Shown in pieces: positions 1 through 42,389 of a stretch of 64,000 bases of DNA (the stretch's first letter is position 1; the number at the start of each line of letters is the position of its first letter). Under the pieces are notes generated by a model. It ran no database searches. It was given only the letters and a program-made list of their open reading frames with translations, and was not told the origin of the DNA. Made by a program: the position numbers and the translations under genes. Source of the DNA: Prosthecobacter fusiformis (GTDB lineage Bacteria > Verrucomicrobiota > Verrucomicrobiia > Verrucomicrobiales > Verrucomicrobiaceae); contig NZ_SOCA01000001.1 in NCBI RefSeq assembly GCF_004364345.1, positions 434,001 through 498,000 on the forward strand. The letters are read 5' to 3'.

Positions 1-2322
1 CTTTTGGAAACGGCCGATCATGTCCATGTTCAGGCAGGCAGCAAACATGCCCGTCAGCTTGCCATTGGGATCACCCTTGAACATTTTGGCCAGGACCTCG
101 ACATAATGACTGCTGCCTAACAAACCGAGTTCTTCACCGGACCAGGCGGCAAAGATGACATCGCGGGTGAGTTTGATCTTCCCCTGCTTCTTCTGATCTG
201 CGAGCCATTGGGCGATCTCGATGACACCGGCGACACCGCTGGCGTTGTCATCGGCACCGTGGTGGATCATGTTGGCTTCATCCCCTTTGGCGCGGGAGTT
301 ATTGCCACCCTTGCTGCCGAGGTGGTCAATGTGGGCGCAGACGATGAGCGGGGCGACATGGGGATCTGGCTTATCGCGAGCGGGCAGGACGGCGATGACG
401 TTGCGGCCGATTTTCTTTTCTTGCCGGATGTCAATTTGGGCACTGAGCTTGAGCCCCTGGCAGTCAATGCCGCCCATGAGGTCGCCAGTGTCCAGTTTGT
501 CCTGGAGTTCTTTGAGGGTCTTGCCTGCGGGTTTGAGCAGGTCATCGGCAACGGCATCGGTGACACTGATGGCGGCGAGGCCAGAGCTGGCGAGAGAGGC
601 ATCAAAAGACATGGGGACAAGCTGGCCGACCACCTTGCTGTTAGGCCCGCTGGCGATGATGAGGCCGCGTGCGCCTTTCTGGCGGGCGACGAGGGCCTTG
701 TGCCGGAGGCTGGCGTAACGGGTGAGCTCATTGCGGCGCTCCTGGGTAATGCCTTCCGGCAGATAGCGGAGGACGAGCACCCATTTGTCCTTCACGTCCA
801 GATGGGCATAGCTACTGTAGGTTTCCATCTTCTTGCCATCCTCGCTGGTGGCCTCCTCTGGCGTTTCAATGCCGTAACCGGCGAAGACAATGTCGCTGGG
901 GGTGACCTCGCCTAACTCAGAGAATGACAGGGGACGCCAGTCTTTATCCGTGACGAGACTTTTGCCTGCGGGTGCGAGGGTAAGGCGGTTGCCATCGCCA
1001 AGGGCTACACCGGCCGTGAATTCGAAGGGATCGAACCACTCTTCATCGCCATAAGGAACGAGGCCGATGCCTTTGAACACATCCGCCACGTACTGGGTGG
1101 CCAGTTTTTCCCCCGGTGTGCCGGTGAGGCGGCCATCCATTTCATCACTGGCCAGATAGGTGACGTGCTGGCGAAGGTCGGCAGGGGTGATGTCTCCCTG
1201 AGTGGCCGAGAAATCTGGCTGGGTGGCAGGCGTGGCCGCTTGGACTGGGGTGGTAATTTCGGAGAGACCGAGGGATTTTAATGCGGCTTCATGATTCCAG
1301 TCGGCCATGAAAATCTGGCTTTGTCCATTGCTGGTGCGACCGGTGGTCCAGGAGAGTTTTTTGCCATCGGGGGTGAATACGGGAAGGCCGTCAAATCCGT
1401 CCGTGGTGGTGATGCGGACAGGCTCGTGCTTACTAGCGGCATCGACAATGTAGAGTTCGAAATTGGCGAAGCCGTTGAGGTTGGTGGTGAAGATGAGGTA
1501 TTCACCACTGGGATGAAAATAGGGTGCCCAGCTCATGGCACCGAGCTTGGTGAGCTGGCGCGGGTCGCTGCCATCGGTATTCATGGTCCAGACTTCAGCG
1601 ACATCGCCTTTCGGCGTAAACCGCCGCCAGCAGATGCGTTTGCCATCCGCACTGAAAAAGCAGCCGCCATCATAACCAGGGGCATCGGTCAGTTGCTTCA
1701 CATTCTGGCCATCGGCATCGGCAATGTAGATGTCCATGAAGTACTGCTTGTCCACCTTGAGCCGCGCGGTGTCTTCTTTGGAAAGTTCCTTTTCATAGGC
1801 AGCGCGATTGCTGGCAAAGATCATCTGGCGGCCATCGGGGGAGTAGGCGCCTTCGGCATCGTAGCCGAGTGTGTTTGTGAGGTTTTTGAGGCTTTTATCA
1901 GCCAAGGTGTATTCCCAGAGGTCGTAATGCTCATCGTAGTCCCAGGAGTATTTGCGCACGCGGCTGGTGGCACGGTCCTTGATTTCGGCGTCTTGAAGTT
2001 CCTTGGACTTAGGATCGGTGTGGGTACTGGCGAAGAGGATGCGTTTTCCATCGGGATGGATCCAGGCGCAGGTGGTCTTGCCCATGCCGGGGGAGATGCG
2101 CTCCTGGTCGCCTGTCTCGAGGTCCATGAGGTAGATCTGATAGAAGGGGTTTCCTTCCTCACGCTCAGACTGGAAGACCATCTTGCTGCCATCGGCGCTG
2201 AAGTAACCTTCCCCTGCCCTGCGGCCATCGAAGGTGAGCTGGCGGATGCTGGTAAGATAATCCGCCTCCGTCTGGGCGAAGGCGGTGGAGAGGGTCAGGC
2301 AGAGAAGGACGAGCAAGCGCAT
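1..2322 (-). CDS. M28 family metallopeptidase with N-terminal PD40 beta-propeller repeats (partial, 3' end beyond window)
   Basis: Exported zinc aminopeptidase/carboxypeptidase-type enzyme of the M28 family. Translation from ATG 2322 gives 774 open codons that run off the left edge. Residues 1-17 form a signal peptide (MRLLVLLCLTLSTAFA). Residues about 25-310 hold repeated TolB/PD40 blades (DGSKMVFQS, DGKRILFAS, DGRQMIFAS, DGKRICWRR). A protease-associated-like insert follows, then the M28 core: H664 in CAHIDHLG, D691 and D692 in HHGADDNASG, and E730/E731 in WSGEELGLLG, which match the di-zinc ligands and catalytic Glu of the family. The propeller-M28 fusion is known from bacteria with large exported peptidase sets. 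The upstream 519-bp gap carries a large repeat element. No good ribosome-binding site is seen; the start is set by the signal peptide. Confidence 0.9.
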   Translation of the reverse strand, partial: MRLLVLLCLTLSTAFAQTEADYLTSIRQLTFDGRRAGEGYFSADGSKMVFQSEREEGNPFYQIYLMDLETGDQERISPGMGKTTCAWIHPDGKRILFASTHTDPKSKELQDAEIKDRATSRVRKYSWDYDEHYDLWEYTLADKSLKNLTNTLGYDAEGAYSPDGRQMIFASNRAAYEKELSKEDTARLKVDKQYFMDIYIADADGQNVKQLTDAPGYDGGCFFSADGKRICWRRFTPKGDVAEVWTMNTDGSDPRQLTKLGAMSWAPYFHPSGEYLIFTTNLNGFANFELYIVDAASKHEPVRITTTDGFDGLPVFTPDGKKLSWTTGRTSNGQSQIFMADWNHEAALKSLGLSEITTPVQAATPATQPDFSATQGDITPADLRQHVTYLASDEMDGRLTGTPGEKLATQYVADVFKGIGLVPYGDEEWFDPFEFTAGVALGDGNRLTLAPAGKSLVTDKDWRPLSFSELGEVTPSDIVFAGYGIETPEEATSEDGKKMETYSSYAHLDVKDKWVLVLRYLPEGITQERRNELTRYASLRHKALVARQKGARGLIIASGPNSKVVGQLVPMSFDASLASSGLAAISVTDAVADDLLKPAGKTLKELQDKLDTGDLMGGIDCQGLKLSAQIDIRQEKKIGRNVIAVLPARDKPDPHVAPLIVCAHIDHLGSKGGNNSRAKGDEANMIHHGADDNASGVAGVIEIAQWLADQKKQGKIKLTRDVIFAAWSGEELGLLGSSHYVEVLAKMFKGDPNGKLTGMFAACLNMDMIGRFQK

Positions 2323-2382: not shown

Positions 2383-2610
2383 GATGGGGAAATGGGGAGA
2401 AATTGCAAAATTTCCCCATGTGGGGATTTTGGCGGGTAATAGCCTGATTATCAATGAGTTGTCGATGGGGATGGATTTCCCCATGGTTTCCCCAGACTTC
2501 CCCATGGGGGAAAGGGTGGGGCGGGCGGGGGCTTTGAATTTGGACAGAATTGCAGGATTGGCAGGATTTACAGGAAGGAGGTTAATTATGTTTTATGATG
2601 TTTTTGGATG
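2383..2610 (-). repeat. Palindrome-rich intergenic element, copy 1 (CCCCATGGGG element)
   Basis: Noncoding element of about 228 bp that recurs, inverted, at 40293-40491. Read on the minus strand it begins with CATCCAAAAACATCAT, followed after a variable stretch by CCCCATGGGGA, TGGGGAAA, CCATGGGGAAA, TCCCCAT, a conserved ATTGATAATCAGG-type block, then the hairpin-like CCCCACATGGGG and a final TCTCCCCAT. The order and approximate spacing of these blocks are the same in both copies, while the sequence between them has diverged. It lies about 60 bp upstream of the M28 peptidase start. Function unknown; it could be a multi-site operator, a structured RNA or a non-autonomous mobile element. Confidence 0.75.
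2541..2574 (-). repeat. 9-bp-periodic ATCCTGTCA-type array
   Basis: On the minus strand the unit AATCCTGCC/AATCCTGCA/ATTCTGTCC repeats about every 9 bp. A second array of the same unit lies at 39993-40028, close to the other copy of the CCCCATGGGG element. Confidence 0.6.
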
Positions 2611-38246: not shown

Positions 38247-38592
38247 TCACTCCACCTTCTCACCAAGCCCAATGGCTTGATAAAAGAATACGTGGCATCA
38301 AATCGCCGGGCCAACACAAGCCACAACTAAAGTACTCCAGAGCTTTAGCTCGCCCATGCCCCGCCATTGATCCGGCTCACGATTTCTCCACACCGGCTGG
38401 TGGACTCAAGCCTAAGTCCTCATGAGTTTGATAGGCATTCCCATCCCTCTTTCCCCAGCCGCAGAGCGGCGTCCGCATTTTAGCCGCACCTTTTAAAAGC
38501 GCGGTTTCTCCCCCAGCACCGCCTTCACTCATCACGTCGCAGCGCGACGCCCGAACTGCCGCGATTCCACCAGTCCATCACGCTAAATCGTA
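38247..38592. other. 346-bp gap with short repeats, no gene
   Basis: Contains a 35-bp motif at 38321-38355 (with AAAGTACTCCAGAG) whose reverse complement recurs at 54381-54409, and a small hairpin GCCGC-AGA-GCGGC at 38459-38471. No coding frame or RNA gene is supported. Confidence 0.6.
38321..38355 (-). repeat. GGGCGAGCTAAA/GAGTACTTT repeat, copy 1
   Basis: On the minus strand reads GGGCGAGCTAAAGC then TCTGGAGTACTTTAG. The plus-strand copy at 54381-54409 differs at two positions in 29. Confidence 0.65.
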
Positions 38593-39705
38593 TTACTGGT
38601 CCTCACCAAAATACTTCGTCCGCAATTCATTGCTCACCCCACGCTCCTGCAGGGTCAGGATCGCCTGGTTCAGCCGCTCTCTCAACAAGCTGTCCTGCTG
38701 CAGGGCGAAGGCATAGTTCTGCCGCTCAAAGACCGGCCCCACCATCATCAGCTTTTCATCCTGCGTCTTTGCCGCCTCATACTGGAGCACCGGTGCATCA
38801 TACACCACCGCATTCACCTTCCCGTCCTTCAGCGCCGCGATGCATTCGCCGATGGTCGCCTCCGGCTGCACCTTCGCACCTTTGGCGGTCAGCCACGTCT
38901 CCGCCGTGCTCCCTTTCACCGTCGCCACTTTCCGGCCCGGCAGGTCCCCTGGTCCATTGATATCCCCCTTCAGCGTATTGATCGTCAGCGTGGTGGTAAA
39001 AGAAGCCGTCAACAAAGACACCAGCACGATGCTCAGCAGCATCCACACAATCGCCACGATCCGTCCGCCCACTCCCACGGGCCCTTTGTTGTCCGCCCCG
39101 CCCACCAGCAGCGTGCTGATCGTCCACCAAAAGGATTCCCACATGCCCGTACGATAGCTTTCTGGCCACTGGTCCCCGTTTACCGGGTGCTCATAGCGCC
39201 AAACCAAATGTGAGATCACGAACATCGTCGCCAGCAGCAGCGCAAACATGCCGATCAGTTCCAGGTTAAACAGATTCGCCAGCATCGGCAGGATATTATC
39301 CGCAAAACTTCCCCCGGCTCCAGCAACCAGCACCTGCAAACCCGACTCATAAAACGGCTGCGAAAAATCAATCACCGCCTCACGCTGCGCCGTCACGCTC
39401 AGTGCCCCTACGCCCACATCCGCCGTCTTGTTCTTCAGCGCATCAATGATCTCCTGCGCATTGCTGACCACCTTCACCTCATACTGCACGCCCGTCTCCC
39501 GCGCCGCCTGGTCCCACAGCTCCGCCGCATATCCCACCCGGCGGCCAGTTTTCTCAAACGAGAACGGCTCCAGATCACGCGTCACCACCCGGATCTTCCC
39601 CACAGCACCCGCCGCCCCAGTTTGCACCGCCTCCTGGCCCCTGAGCCCAGAAACCCATCCGATGGAAACCAACACAACCGTTAAAAAAGCAAAGCAATGA
39701 CGCAT
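38593..39705 (-). CDS. Prokaryotic glutamate-receptor-like ligand-gated ion channel (GluR0-type)
   Basis: 370 aa with the split periplasmic-binding-protein plan of bacterial ionotropic glutamate receptors. Signal peptide 1-23; lobe S1 (IRVVTRDLEPFSFEK...GVGALSVTAQREAVIDFSQPFYESGL); M1 about 150-168; re-entrant pore loop 188-205; M2 about 213-236 (GGRIVAIVWMLLSIVLVSLLTASFTTTLT); lobe S2 255-365 (GRKVATVKGSTAETWL, VYDAPVLQYEA). GluR0 has a potassium filter TVGYGD; here the aligned stretch is TLLVGGADNKGP, so potassium selectivity is doubtful. Ligand probably an amino acid (inference). Confidence 0.87.
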   Translation of the reverse strand: MRHCFAFLTVVLVSIGWVSGLRGQEAVQTGAAGAVGKIRVVTRDLEPFSFEKTGRRVGYAAELWDQAARETGVQYEVKVVSNAQEIIDALKNKTADVGVGALSVTAQREAVIDFSQPFYESGLQVLVAGAGGSFADNILPMLANLFNLELIGMFALLLATMFVISHLVWRYEHPVNGDQWPESYRTGMWESFWWTISTLLVGGADNKGPVGVGGRIVAIVWMLLSIVLVSLLTASFTTTLTINTLKGDINGPGDLPGRKVATVKGSTAETWLTAKGAKVQPEATIGECIAALKDGKVNAVVYDAPVLQYEAAKTQDEKLMMVGPVFERQNYAFALQQDSLLRERLNQAILTLQERGVSNELRTKYFGEDQ

Positions 39706-39992
39706 ATTCCGCCTCTACGCTTTTCAACACTCACGTCAATCACTCCCTAAAGTATTTCCACCCAAAACATAAAGTAAAAGTACGACAGCACCTTTGTCCC
39801 CAGAAGCGCAAGCGCCTGTCCCATGGAGCGCGGGCGTCCTCGCCTGCCGTCTTGTGCGTCCCGCGCAAGACCGTTCTAACCGCCCCGTCCGCCATGAAAA
39901 GCCCACTTCTCCATCGACATTCAAAAACCCACCATTCAAGCCCATAGGACTCATTAGTCCCATCGGACCTATCCGAAACGCCCCCTCCCAAA

Positions 39993-40028
39993 AATCCTGT
40001 CAATCCTGCCATCTTGTTAATCCTGTAA
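39993..40028 (+). repeat. 9-bp-periodic ATCCTGTCA array, copy 2
   Basis: Units ATCCTGTCA, ATCCTGCCA, TCTTGTTA and ATCCTGTAA follow each other with about 9-bp spacing. The same unit occurs at 2541-2574 inside the other element. Confidence 0.65.
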
Positions 40029-40292
40029 AAAAGCCCTCTTCCACCCCCAAGCCCGTCCCCCCAAATACCCCTCCACTAAAAGTAGCCCGCTCAGTCCCCT
40101 GAGCGGAAGCCACCCCGAAGCCCCTCCAGCCCTCTTACCACCAGCCCACCATCGAAGCCCCCCCAAGCCCCCCAGCCACTCCACCCCCCACTTAGCCCAA
40201 GTCGCCCCATCACCCCCTTGCATTCCCCGCCATCCCGCCCCGATGTTTACCCCCATAGCAACCCACACCGCCGTCTTCCTCGCAACCCCAAA

Positions 40293-40491
40293 CATCCAAA
40301 AACATCATTAAACATAAACACGCATGCCCATCAACCACCCTGAAATTCAGTCAAAATTACCACTCTTCCCCTCCCCATGGGGACGATGGGGACCTCCATG
40401 GGGAAAATCACCCCCATGCCCAACCCACTGATGATCAAGGCTTTACAACCCAAAATCCCCAGATGGGGAAAAAACGCATTTCCTCCCCATC
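40293..40491 (+). repeat. Palindrome-rich intergenic element, copy 2 (CCCCATGGGG element)
   Basis: Inverted relative to the copy at 2383-2610. It starts with the same 16-mer CATCCAAAAACATCAT, then CCCCATGGGGA, ATGGGGA, CCATGGGGAAAA, CCCCCAT, an ACTGATGATCAAGG block, CCCCAGATGGGG and TCCTCCCCAT. Loop bases in the last palindrome differ between copies (ACAT/AGAT) while the CCCC/GGGG arms are kept. Confidence 0.75.
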
Positions 40492-40580
40492 CTGAGATCA
40501 TCCCGCCTCAATAAAGGCAGCCGTAAATTCCAGAATCACCTCCGTAAAAACTGGAATCTCGATCCGTGACCGCTAAAACC

Positions 40581-42302
40581 TCAAAACTGCTTATCCGTCA
40601 CAGCACCTTCACTGGCACTCGTCGTCAGCGCAGCATACTTGGCCAGCACCCCACGGGTATAGCGCGGCTTCGGCTGCTTCCAGCTTTTCAGACGCTCCGC
40701 CAGTTCCTTGGCCGGAATGCCCAGAGTGATCGCCCGCTTCTCGGCATCAATGGTGATCTTGTCACCATTCTTGATGACTGCGATCGGACCACCGACAAAC
40801 GCTTCCGGCGTCACGTGACCCACCACAAAACCGTGGCTGCCACCGCTGAAACGGCCATCCGTGATCAGCGCCACATCCTTGCCCAGGCCCTTGCCCATGA
40901 TGGCGGAGGTCGGGCTCAGCATCTCGCGCATTCCTGGACCGCCCTTCGGCCCTTCCATGCGGATGACGATGACATGGCCCTTTTTCACCTTGTCATTCAG
41001 GATCGCTTCCAGCGCCTTCTCCTCGGATTCAAACACGATGGCCTTGCCCGTAAAGGTCAGACCTTCCTTGCCGCTGATCTTGCCCACGGCGCCTTCAGGG
41101 CAAAGGTTGCCTTTGAAGATGACCAGGTGGCTGTCCTTCTTGATCGGGTCGCTCAGCGGCCGCACGATCTGCTGGCTCTTCGGCCACACGATCTTGGACT
41201 TCCTGACGTTCTCTTTCATCGTCCGACCTGTCACGGTCAGGCAGTCACCATGCATCAGACCTTCCTCCACCAGGATGCGCATCAACGGCACTGTGCCGCC
41301 GATTTTGACCAGGTCATTCATGAAATATTTGCCGCTAGGCTTCAGGTCCGCCAGCACCGGGGTCTTCTTGCCGATGCGGACAAAGTCCTCAATCGTCAGT
41401 TTCACGCCCGCGCTGTGGGCCATGGCGATGAGATGCAGCACCGCATTGGTGGAGCCGCCCAGCGTGATGATCAGCGTGATGGCGTTTTCAAAAGCTTCCT
41501 TCGTCATGATGTCACGCGGGGTGATGCCCAGCTTGATCATGTTCATGACGGCCGCACCGGCGTCGAAGCAGTCGATCAGTTTGTCATCGCCCACGGCCGA
41601 TTGCGCACCGGAGTTTGGCAGGGACATGCCCAGGGCCTCAATGGCGCTGGCCATCGTATTCGCCGTATACATGCCGCCGCAGGAGCCTTCACCGGGGATG
41701 CTATTCTCTTCGATGTCGATCAGGTCCGCATCCGTGATCTGGCAGTTGGCATGCTTACCCACGGCTTCAAAAACGGTCACAATATCCGCATCCTTTTTCT
41801 CATGGCCCACACAACCAGGGAGGATGGTGCCGCCATAGACGAACACGCTCGGGCGATTCAACCGGGCCATCGCCATCACACAGCCTGGCATGTTTTTGTC
41901 ACAACCGCCGATGGCCACAAAGCCGTCCATACCTTCGCAGCCCACCACCGTTTCAATCGAATCCGCGATCACCTCACGGCTCACCAGGGAATACTTCATC
42001 CCTTCAGTCCCCATCGAGATACCGTCGGAAATGGTGATGGTGTTAAAGATCAGGCTTTTGCCGCCAGCCGCATCCACACCCTTGGCCGTTTCCTTGGCCA
42101 GCCGGTCGATGTGCATGTTACAGGGCGTGACCATGCTCCAGGTGCTGGCAATACCGATCTGCGATTTCTGAAAGTCTTCCCGCTTAAAGCCAACCGCATG
42201 CAGCATGGCGCGGCTCGGTGCCCGCTCCACACCGTCCACGACGATGGCGCTGTGTTTACGATGAAGGGATTCAGGTTTCTTGGATGCTGCTTTCTTGGCC
42301 AT
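40581..42302 (-). CDS. ilvD: Dihydroxy-acid dehydratase
   Basis: Fe-S enzyme of branched-chain amino acid synthesis, converting 2,3-dihydroxy acids to 2-oxo acids. 573 aa from ATG 42302. Cluster and active-site blocks: [59 protein letters not shown] and [15 protein letters not shown] with the active-site Ser. The longer frame to 42389 adds residues without family similarity. It makes 2-oxoisovalerate, also the AvtA partner, but the two genes are 10 kb apart. Confidence 0.96.
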
Positions 42303-42389
42303 GATAGGGTGGGCGCGCATACTGCCAGCAGCATCCCCCGCTTGCAAGCAGGGAACCGCAGGGATCATCACACTCGCCGACCTCCGCAA

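What the first reader, a model, noticed from the sequence alone, without database searches (positions are those of the whole stretch)
2383..2610. Two inverted ~200-bp noncoding elements with ordered CCCCATGGGG palindromes
The minus strand of 2383-2610 and the plus strand of 40293-40491 share, in order, CATCCAAAAACATCAT, CCCCATGGGGA, TGGGGA, CCATGGGGAAA, CCCCAT, an AT-rich TGATRATCARG block, CCCC-A(C/G)AT-GGGG and TCCCCAT. Connecting sequence has drifted while the palindromic boxes persist, which suggests the TGGGGA half-sites matter. Six or more half-sites in 130 bp could be an operator array, a structured RNA, or the ends of a non-autonomous mobile element. I know of no named element of this form.
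Basis: partly seen in the sequence, partly recalled or inferred. Interest (0 to 1): 0.78.

Follow-up and report, generated by a model that had tools for sequence, protein, structure and literature searches.

The report
Repeated gene-upstream binding-box array in Prosthecobacter
The two look-alike stretches belong to a family of about 75 short non-coding DNA modules in this bacterium's genome that mostly sit, pointing the same way, in front of genes, and that look like landing arrays for a DNA-binding protein built around a DNA-bending site.

Summary
The finding is real and larger than reported. The two copies align far better than shuffles (130 vs at most 43 in 500) and belong to a family of 75 places in this genome. 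In its genus (Prosthecobacter) 5 of 48 genomes have matches. The unit is about 135 bp; the CATCCAAAAACATCAT part is separate (near 5 of 120 copies). Anatomy: a central dyad matching the IHF consensus (at most 1 mismatch in 90 of 120 copies, 3 of 120 flank stretches), about 7 TCCCCA/TGGGGA boxes per copy, upstream boxes in 10-11-bp steps, either orientation filling a slot. The gene downstream runs the same way in 106 of 119 copies. Copies shared between species mostly share the downstream gene; boxes stay while linkers drift. Hairpins show no covariation; no REP tag; no Rfam match; target duplications unresolved. Best reading: a lineage-specific DNA-level upstream control module, an IHF/HU-bent array for an unidentified box-binding protein. 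Its protein, effect and way of spreading are unknown; a Correia-like mobile origin is not excluded.

The parts
2383..2516 (-). Copy 1 of the element (about 135 bp). Model core R1 at 2387-2473 (minus), 74 bits.
   Evidence: boundaries approximate, from the information profile
2385..2426 (-). 3' part of copy 1: boxes TGGGGA at 2385, 2393 and 2421, TCCCCA at 2413 (plus-strand words); 2414-2425 is the CCCC-N4-GGGG palindrome used as anchor
2437..2461 (.). Central IHF/HU-type dyad of copy 1: WATCARNNNNTTR matched on the minus strand (2437-2449) and on the plus strand (2449-2461)
   Evidence: read; consensus WATCARNNNNTTR from PMC9820253 (passages); enrichment in the family
2466..2516 (-). Upstream (5') box array of copy 1: boxes at 2466 (TGGGGA), 2478, 2489 and 2499 (TCCCCA, plus-strand words), with CCCCATGGGG at 2500-2509
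1..2322 (-). Gene downstream of copy 1: PD40/WD40-like beta-propeller protein, runs off the window; a promoter-like block TTGACTGCAA..GCGTATGTT lies between element and start codon
   Evidence: Pfam PF07676; open frame 987 aa; block seen in 9 of the 10 orthologues printed; G034 has the element at the same gene, G019 and G018 do not
40366..40492 (+). Copy 2 of the element. Model core R1 at 40410-40492 (plus), 68.4 bits. One of 13 of 119 copies in the minority orientation: it faces the 3' end of the gene at 40581-42389 (minus), which I take for ilvD (recalled, no family search run)
40372..40404 (+). Upstream boxes of copy 2: TCCCCA 40372, TGGGGA 40378, 40387, 40399
40433..40445 (+). IHF-type site of copy 2 (one mismatch to WATCARNNNNTTR)
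   Evidence: read; family enrichment
40456..40490 (+). 3' part of copy 2: TCCCCA 40456, TGGGGA 40464, TCCCCA 40484

Best explanation
A lineage-specific family of cis-acting DNA elements that sit upstream of genes, and in the two cases looked at just upstream of a promoter-like block. An IHF/HU-family protein bends the central dyad. An unidentified protein binds the TCCCCA/TGGGGA boxes, which lie on one face of the helix (10-11 bp steps), and the bend brings the upstream row (six slots) together with the downstream boxes into one nucleoprotein complex that tunes the promoter of the gene downstream. SHOWN by sequence: family, clade restriction, phasing, orientation bias, sharing of the downstream gene between species, retention of box positions. 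INFERRED: IHF/HU binding, existence of a box-binding protein, that it acts on transcription, and the sign of its effect (activation is my guess from the upstream position). NOT KNOWN: how new copies arise.
For: Orientation: the called 3' gene runs the same way as the element in 106 of 119 copies (1 of 120 has no called 3' gene). In co-directional gene pairs 60 forward, 8 reversed; 35 divergent; 2 convergent (5 genomes; this genome alone 68 of 75). Convergent gaps: 2 of 105 for the element against 5 of 26 element-free gaps of at least 200 bp, p 0.003. Sharing between species: 31 pairs of copies share the 3' gene in the same orientation (7 of these also the 5' flank), 3 pairs share the 5' flank only, 2 are inverted. 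At the 31 shared-gene pairs the 42 informative columns are 87.9% identical and the 21 uninformative ones 38.9% (non-shared pairs 84.9% and 28.7%), so boxes are kept while linkers turn over. Phasing: in the 5' half, successive same-orientation boxes are 10 or 11 bp apart in 130 cases, with further clusters near 20, 30 and 40; vector strength 0.77 and 0.85 against null maxima 0.28 and 0.35. Slot S6 of that half is the first box of model R1, so I repeated it on S1-S5 alone: 0.72 and 0.85 against 0.35 and 0.33, and for the 54 copies that were not in the alignment behind R1 0.74 and 0.82 against 0.42 and 0.41. Slot S5 is filled in 93 of 95 copies, 61 by TGGGGA and 32 by TCCCCA; 8 of 22 same-gene pairs have at least one slot with swapped orientation. 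Boxes: 7.3 per element against 0.2-0.4 in 150-bp flanks. IHF consensus within 1 mismatch: 90 of 120 copies, 3 of 120 flank stretches, 39 of 600 shuffles. Promoter-like block between element and gene in the 2 genes printed. HU/IHF-family (PF00216) genes in 48 of 48 genus genomes.
Against: No binding protein was identified and there is no expression data. The downstream genes do not form one pathway. Copies come and go fast: at purH, G000 and G056 have one, G019 and G034 do not. G019 groups with G034 in a single-gene purH tree (support 0.89) yet has only 2 copies, so the module is dispensable there. 13 of 119 copies, including copy 2 of this window, point the other way, and two such sites are themselves shared between species. 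A core beside one gene can be close to a core beside another: G034_C7_52819 and G034_C4_25455 are 90% identical, which shows copying. Copies are related to each other, so counts over copies are not independent events. Shared-gene copies are only slightly more alike than others, so independent gain at the same gene is not strictly excluded. Gene calls come from a simple codon-usage caller of my own.
Confidence: 0.58

Rival explanations
1. A selfish, non-autonomous mobile repeat of the Correia (CREE) sort: it carries an IHF site, inserts near promoters, and the orientation bias reflects insertion preference or removal of harmful orientations; regulation is a side effect.
For: Copy number from 75 to 0 among near relatives; dispersed, mostly intergenic (5 of 120 overlap an ORF call), clade-restricted. 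Cores at unrelated genes can be alike (G034_C7_52819 and G034_C4_25455, 90%). CREE are of similar length, have an IHF site in the long form, and 71 of 113 in one gonococcal strain lie 5' of genes (another passage of the same paper says 76; PMC2649163, passages). One 1.4-kb gene stretch beside a copy is 95.6% identical between G019 and G034, where the other 30 shared 3' flanks are 69-90%, pointing to recent transfer. Direct repeats next to the ends are in excess of shuffled partners: 5-mers 72 vs 61.4 and 7-mers 16 vs 7.8 of 97; windows 25-30 bp further out, 6-mers 32 vs 16.9 and 7-mers 11 vs 4.6; z 2.4-3.1 in several neighbouring cells; z 7.7, or 8.7 with boxes masked.
Against: The z of 8.7 is carried by two copies (52-bp and 36-bp repeats): without them z is 2.1 for direct and 2.6 for inverted repeats, and there is no fixed length or position. 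Terminal inverted repeats at the unit's ends: no excess beyond 1.4 sd. Cores are diverged: median pair identity 0.60, best 0.91 (a tandem pair). Neutral decay would not keep boxes at 88% with linkers at 39%. A phased array with swapped slots is not expected of a passenger. No clean empty site was found at the two places compared.
Confidence: 0.22
2. A structured 5' leader RNA (riboswitch, stabiliser or attenuator) made of CCCC/GGGG hairpins.
For: Upstream of genes in the sense orientation; boxes can form hairpins; copy 1 with its 5' flank folds at z -1.65, 10 of 200 shuffles fold as well; the anchor hairpin pairs in 96% of cells, by conservation.
Against: No pair with both sides changed in 5 pairs, 5 pairs or 7 pairs; 66 and 67 used 60 copies. 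Boxes swap orientation at fixed helical phase. Two G056 copies keep the ATGGGG half and lose the CCCC arm (alignment). Promoter-like block 3' of the element in the 2 genes printed. No Rfam match to the element in the window and 33 fetched loci.
Confidence: 0.07
3. A nucleoid or topology site (gyrase/IHF-type, like BIMEs of enterobacteria; recalled) that insulates promoters, with no gene-specific regulator.
For: IHF-type core; broad set of unrelated genes including alaS, pheS, lysS, lepA, dnaN, tig, purH and purL types; phasing could be read as intrinsic curvature. Orientation on contig C1 is mixed (16 minus, 9 plus), so it is not a simple replication-polarity site.
Against: Preferred orientation toward the downstream gene; the exact hexamer is repeated about 7 times per copy, though I did not test whether other G/C tracts would fill slots.
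Confidence: 0.12

Closest known systems
Correia repeat enclosed elements (CREE), Neisseria
   Same: Dispersed element of about 104-108 or 153-157 bp, IHF site in the long form, often 5' of genes; at opa genes a promoter appears to lie between CREE and gene (PMC2649163, passages)
   Different: CREE have defined inverted-repeat ends, target duplication and promoter pieces at the ends; here no terminal inverted repeats at the ends, no fixed duplication, a sigma-70-like score in at most 11% of copies in any 10-bp bin scanned, but a helically phased box array and strong orientation bias
REP / BIME / REPIN repeats mobilised by RAYTs
   Same: Short palindromic intergenic repeats in tens to hundreds of copies; Y1-transposase genes exist in 47 of 48 genus genomes
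   Different: GTAG in only 2 of 97 copies. An abstract passage, seen in part, speaks of REPs downstream of coding regions (PMC3733652); this element is upstream. Y1_Tnp count does not follow element count (G019 16 genes and 2 elements; G000 14 and 75)
Multi-site upstream activating regions bent by IHF (as at sigma-54 and other IHF-dependent promoters; recalled)
   Same: Helically phased activator sites with an IHF bend upstream of a promoter
   Different: Those are one or a few promoters with a known regulator (recalled); here a dispersed family of 75 places with an unknown box binder; strict sigma-54 promoter string in 2 of 120

Membership tests
REP (GTAG/CGTC-tagged) | GTAG or CGTC tetranucleotide at the foot of the stem | tested here: not met
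   GTAG in 2 of 97, CGTC in 22 of 97 copies anywhere in the unit (other tetranucleotides 4-45), no conserved tag column
REPIN/RAYT | Copy number follows a dedicated RAYT, elements next to the RAYT gene | tested here: inconclusive
   Y1_Tnp present in 47 of 48 genomes with no visible relation to element count; RAYT subfamily and adjacency not tested
CREE / MITE | Terminal inverted repeats | tested here: not met
   5-8-mers in inverted orientation at the ends: no excess beyond 1.4 sd. Wider flanks show a weak excess of inverted repeats, z 3.1 unmasked, 2.6 masked without two outliers
CREE / MITE | Target-site duplication of fixed length | tested here: inconclusive
   Excess of direct repeats, z 8.7, falling to 2.1 without two copies; no fixed length or position
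IHF-binding element | WATCARNNNNTTR site | tested here: met
   35 of 120 perfect, 90 of 120 with at most 1 mismatch, against 3 of 120 flank stretches
IHF-binding element | Actual binding and bending by IHF/HU | not testable with these tools
   PF00216 genes present in 48 of 48 genomes; binding needs experiment
Structured RNA family | Covarying base pairs | tested here: not met
   0 pairs with both sides changed
Known Rfam family | Match above the gathering score | tested here: not met
   window 0; 13 loci: only RNase P RNA beside one copy; 20 loci: 0; the other copies were not scanned
sigma-54 promoter upstream region | -24/-12 promoter downstream | tested here: not met
   strict pattern in 2 of 120 copies, element plus 200 nt

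The most novel reading that the evidence does not exclude
A portable bacterial 'enhancer': a copy-number-variable DNA module that recruits a dedicated, still unknown protein onto a helically phased row of boxes folded by an IHF/HU bend, and that has spread in a few Prosthecobacter species to put about 64 unrelated genes here, many of them core growth genes, under one new regulator.
Probability: 0.33. Interest if true: 0.82.

Novelty: new variant of a known kind. Interest (0 to 1): 0.63.

Why it matters
If it works as inferred, a whole regulon was assembled in one small clade by multiplication of a ready-made control module. The same genes exist with and without the module in sister species, which makes the birth and loss of a bacterial regulon directly testable. 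Swapped boxes at unchanged helical phase in same-gene copies also give a view of site turnover inside a bacterial control region. For the phylum Verrucomicrobiota, where few regulators are known (recalled), it offers a bait for finding one.

Tried and rejected
Rfam: nothing for the element. RNA structure: no covariation. Clade-specific HU/IHF paralogue: 42 of 48 genomes have exactly 2 PF00216 matches, the element-bearing five among them. RAYT link: no visible correlation. Tandem duplications: four same-direction pairs upstream of one gene each (C4, C3, C1, C17); these 8 copies were dropped from the slot counts, the phasing test and the duplication tests. Fixed sigma-70-like site inside the element: only a bump to 11% of copies at core positions 40-50. 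Empty-site comparison at purH (by eye) and at the gene beside copy 2 (hit table only): matches to relatives begin at that gene's end, no clean junction. Viral contigs: 2 weak partial matches. Phylum scan: 387 genomes drawn evenly (this genus thinly sampled), 3 with a match at E 1e-4: the window's own genome, G066, and a weak partial match in G191. Wider model R2 over 24 genomes: G066 3 hits, G019 2, four others one partial hit each with E above 0.01, 18 none. Named genome collection: one pattern scan, 1 contig (the tool says near relatives may be left out). Literature: searches; among the titles and abstract starts listed (some lists capped far below the number found) I saw no paper on this element. 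They cover open-licence PMC papers only. Papers were seen as passages only.

Rows dropped: of 28 matches in G034 I used 26, of 16 in G056 15, of 76 in G000 75; the slot, phasing and later duplication tests use 95 of 120 copies (the rest: tandem pairs, no exact anchor, or too little flank), the earlier ones 97 or 98 of 103; shared-gene slot comparison 22 of 31 pairs; shared flanks were counted only from alignments of 250 bp or more at E 1e-20; Pfam on 60 of 64 distinct same-direction downstream genes of this genome (68 copies); orthologue upstream regions printed for 10 of 30 fetched loci each.

Full report
WHAT WAS CLAIMED AND WHAT IS THERE. They do: local alignment score 130 against at most 43 in 500 shuffled pairs. 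The window is contig C1:434001-498000 of a 5.83-Mb genome. The genus name rests on one same-genus genome, G056: its contig C1159 has 26,679 bases and a copy at 75-158, as has record JAOZVT010001159.1, 'MAG: Prosthecobacter sp. isolate bin D_3_3'.

A FAMILY OF ABOUT 75. Blastn with copy 1 gave 48 matches in the genome, some of them to the neighbouring repeat. I aligned 50 distinct copies, built a sequence-only model of the common 3' core (R1) and searched the genome: 75 places with E from 2e-21 to 1.7e-6. In 48 genomes of the genus, matches at E 0.001 occur in G000 (76), G034 (28), G056 (16, a fragmented genome), G019 (2) and G066 (2, weak); 43 have none. In 387 genomes spread over the phylum only this genome, G066 and one weak partial match (G191) appear. 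A second model from 60 copies added in 24 genomes nothing beyond G019, G066 and four partial hits with E above 0.01.

ANATOMY. Taking CCCCnnATGGGG as anchor, information is confined to about -95 to +42. From 5' to 3': a variable array of TCCCCA/TGGGGA boxes; a fixed TCCCCAT; the dyad YAA-N4-TTGAT-N-ATCAA-N4-TTR; AAAAT; the anchor palindrome; AAAAATT-like DNA; a last TCCCCAT. A unit holds 7.3 boxes on average against 0.2-0.4 in 150-bp flanks. The dyad matches the IHF consensus WATCARNNNNTTR (given in PMC9820253, passages) with at most one mismatch in 90 of 120 copies, and on both strands in 49 of 120, against 3 of 120 flanking stretches and 39 of 600 shuffles. In copy 1 both strands match perfectly (2437-2449 minus and 2449-2461 plus; my reading).

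HELICAL PHASING. In the 5' half, box centres fall into slots near -94, -83, -75, -65, -54 and -42. Neighbouring boxes of the same orientation are 10 or 11 bp apart in 130 cases, with further clusters near 20, 30 and 40; vector strength at 10.4 bp is 0.77 (TCCCCA) and 0.85 (TGGGGA) against null maxima of 0.28 and 0.35. The last slot (-42) is the first box of model R1, and 50 copies were aligned before R1 was built, so I repeated the test on slots S1-S5 alone: 0.72 and 0.85 against 0.35 and 0.33 for 95 copies, 0.74 and 0.82 against 0.42 and 0.41 for the 54 copies outside that first alignment. Slots accept either orientation: S5 holds TGGGGA in 61 and TCCCCA in 32 of 95 copies. In 8 of 22 same-gene pairs between species at least one slot is swapped. 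Shared descent alone could explain a common register, but hardly swapped words at the same phase. This speaks for proteins on one face of duplex DNA and against hairpins.

ORIENTATION TO GENES. With a simple codon-usage gene caller trained on this window, the gene 3' of the element runs the same way in 106 of 119 copies. Among co-directional neighbours 60 are forward and 8 reversed, 35 lie between divergent genes, 2 between convergent ones; the median distance to a same-direction gene start is 154 bp. For this genome alone it is 68 of 75. Convergent gaps make up 5 of 26 element-free gaps of at least 200 bp. Copy 2 of this window is one of the 13 exceptions. In the 13 exception loci a tRNA-Arg gene lies 5' of one copy and an RNase P RNA gene beside another; neither they nor any other Rfam gene lies 3' of the element in its direction.

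SHARED GENES. Between genomes, 31 pairs of copies share the 3' flanking gene in the same relative orientation, 7 of them also the 5' flank; 3 pairs share the 5' side only (all involve G034_C4_537059) and 2 are inverted (both involve G056_C1021_15243). Copy 1 itself has its counterpart at the same gene in G034, while G019 and G018 have that gene without the element. At shared genes the informative columns are 87.9% identical and the uninformative 38.9%; for non-shared pairs 84.9% and 28.7%. So boxes are kept while linkers turn over. That fits selection on the boxes; independent gain at the same genes cannot be fully excluded because linkers are so diverged. Copying between genes also shows: the cores G034_C7_52819 and G034_C4_25455, beside different genes, are 90% identical, against a median of 60% over pairs.

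PROMOTERS. In the two genes for which I printed upstream regions of relatives, a block close to the start codon is present with and without the element (copy 1 gene: TTGACTGCAA..GCGTATGTT in 9 of the 10 printed; purH likewise, by eye), and the element lies upstream of it. This is a reading by eye on 2 genes, not a promoter map.

DOWNSTREAM GENES. Pfam on 60 of 64 distinct same-direction downstream genes (53 with at least one family) shows no single pathway: alaS, pheS and lysS type synthetases, lepA, dnaN, tig, purH, purL type, tgt, gltB N-terminal domain, uvrD, ppk, a DAHP synthetase family I protein, kdsB type and exbB type, alongside two sulfatases, Planctomycete-type cytochromes and three DUF7133 proteins. 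Gene short names are my inference from the Pfam domains.

WHAT IT IS NOT, AND WHAT STAYS OPEN. No covariation, no Rfam match to the element in the window and 33 loci, no excess of inverted repeats at the ends (weak excess in wider flanks), no REP tag, no link to HU/IHF gene number or, as far as seen, Y1-transposase number. Flanking direct repeats are in excess, but two copies carry most of it: z 8.7 with them, 2.1 without, so target duplication is unresolved. The nearest described system is the Correia element of Neisseria (PMC2649163, passages). It shares length, IHF site and position 5' of genes, but has inverted-repeat ends and target duplication and, in the passages I read, no phased array.

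VERDICT. I hold a DNA-level upstream regulatory module at 0.58; a Correia-like mobile repeat at 0.22; a topology or insulator site at 0.12; a leader RNA at 0.07. The binding protein, the effect on expression and the way copies arise are unknown.

Noticed in passing
window 2517-2594 and about 39980-40072; elsewhere in G000, G034, G056, G019, G066, G018: A second dispersed repeat around TCCTGTnAATCCTGnnAATCCTG lies near both copies and gives many matches in the related genomes.
   Followed up: no
window about 38380-38600 and 39820-39890: Two more stretches of the window match many places in G034 and other relatives; the intergenic DNA of this clade seems rich in several repeat families.
   Followed up: no
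window 2595-2610 (minus) and 40293-40308 (plus): CATCCAAAAACATCAT: within 2 mismatches it occurs 7 times in about 370 kb of fetched loci, and lies 5' of an element in the same orientation in 5 of 120 copies.
   Followed up: partly
L013:2-1381 (minus) and L151:7214-8689: The gene downstream of copies G000_C6_136679 and G019_C1_32982 (82% identical flanks) encodes a JetA-like protein of the Wadjet defence system (Pfam PF18982 on the first); both species have the element in front of it.
   Followed up: no
L150 (G019_C4_65325) and L131 (G034_C6_298346): About 1.4 kb of downstream gene beside a copy is 95.6% identical between two species whose other shared 3' flanks are 69-90% identical, suggesting recent transfer of gene and element together.
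   Followed up: no
L138 (G034_C4_453325): This copy is flanked by a 52-bp near-exact direct repeat; the only other long one is a 36-bp pair at G056_C145_5855 that looks like a dispersed repeat.
   Followed up: no
L134 (G034_C7_52819) and L126 (G034_C4_25455): Two cores beside different genes of one genome are 90% identical, the clearest sign of recent copying seen.
   Followed up: no
L182, L159, L178, L203: Four places with two copies about 180-400 bp apart in the same direction upstream of one gene.
   Followed up: partly
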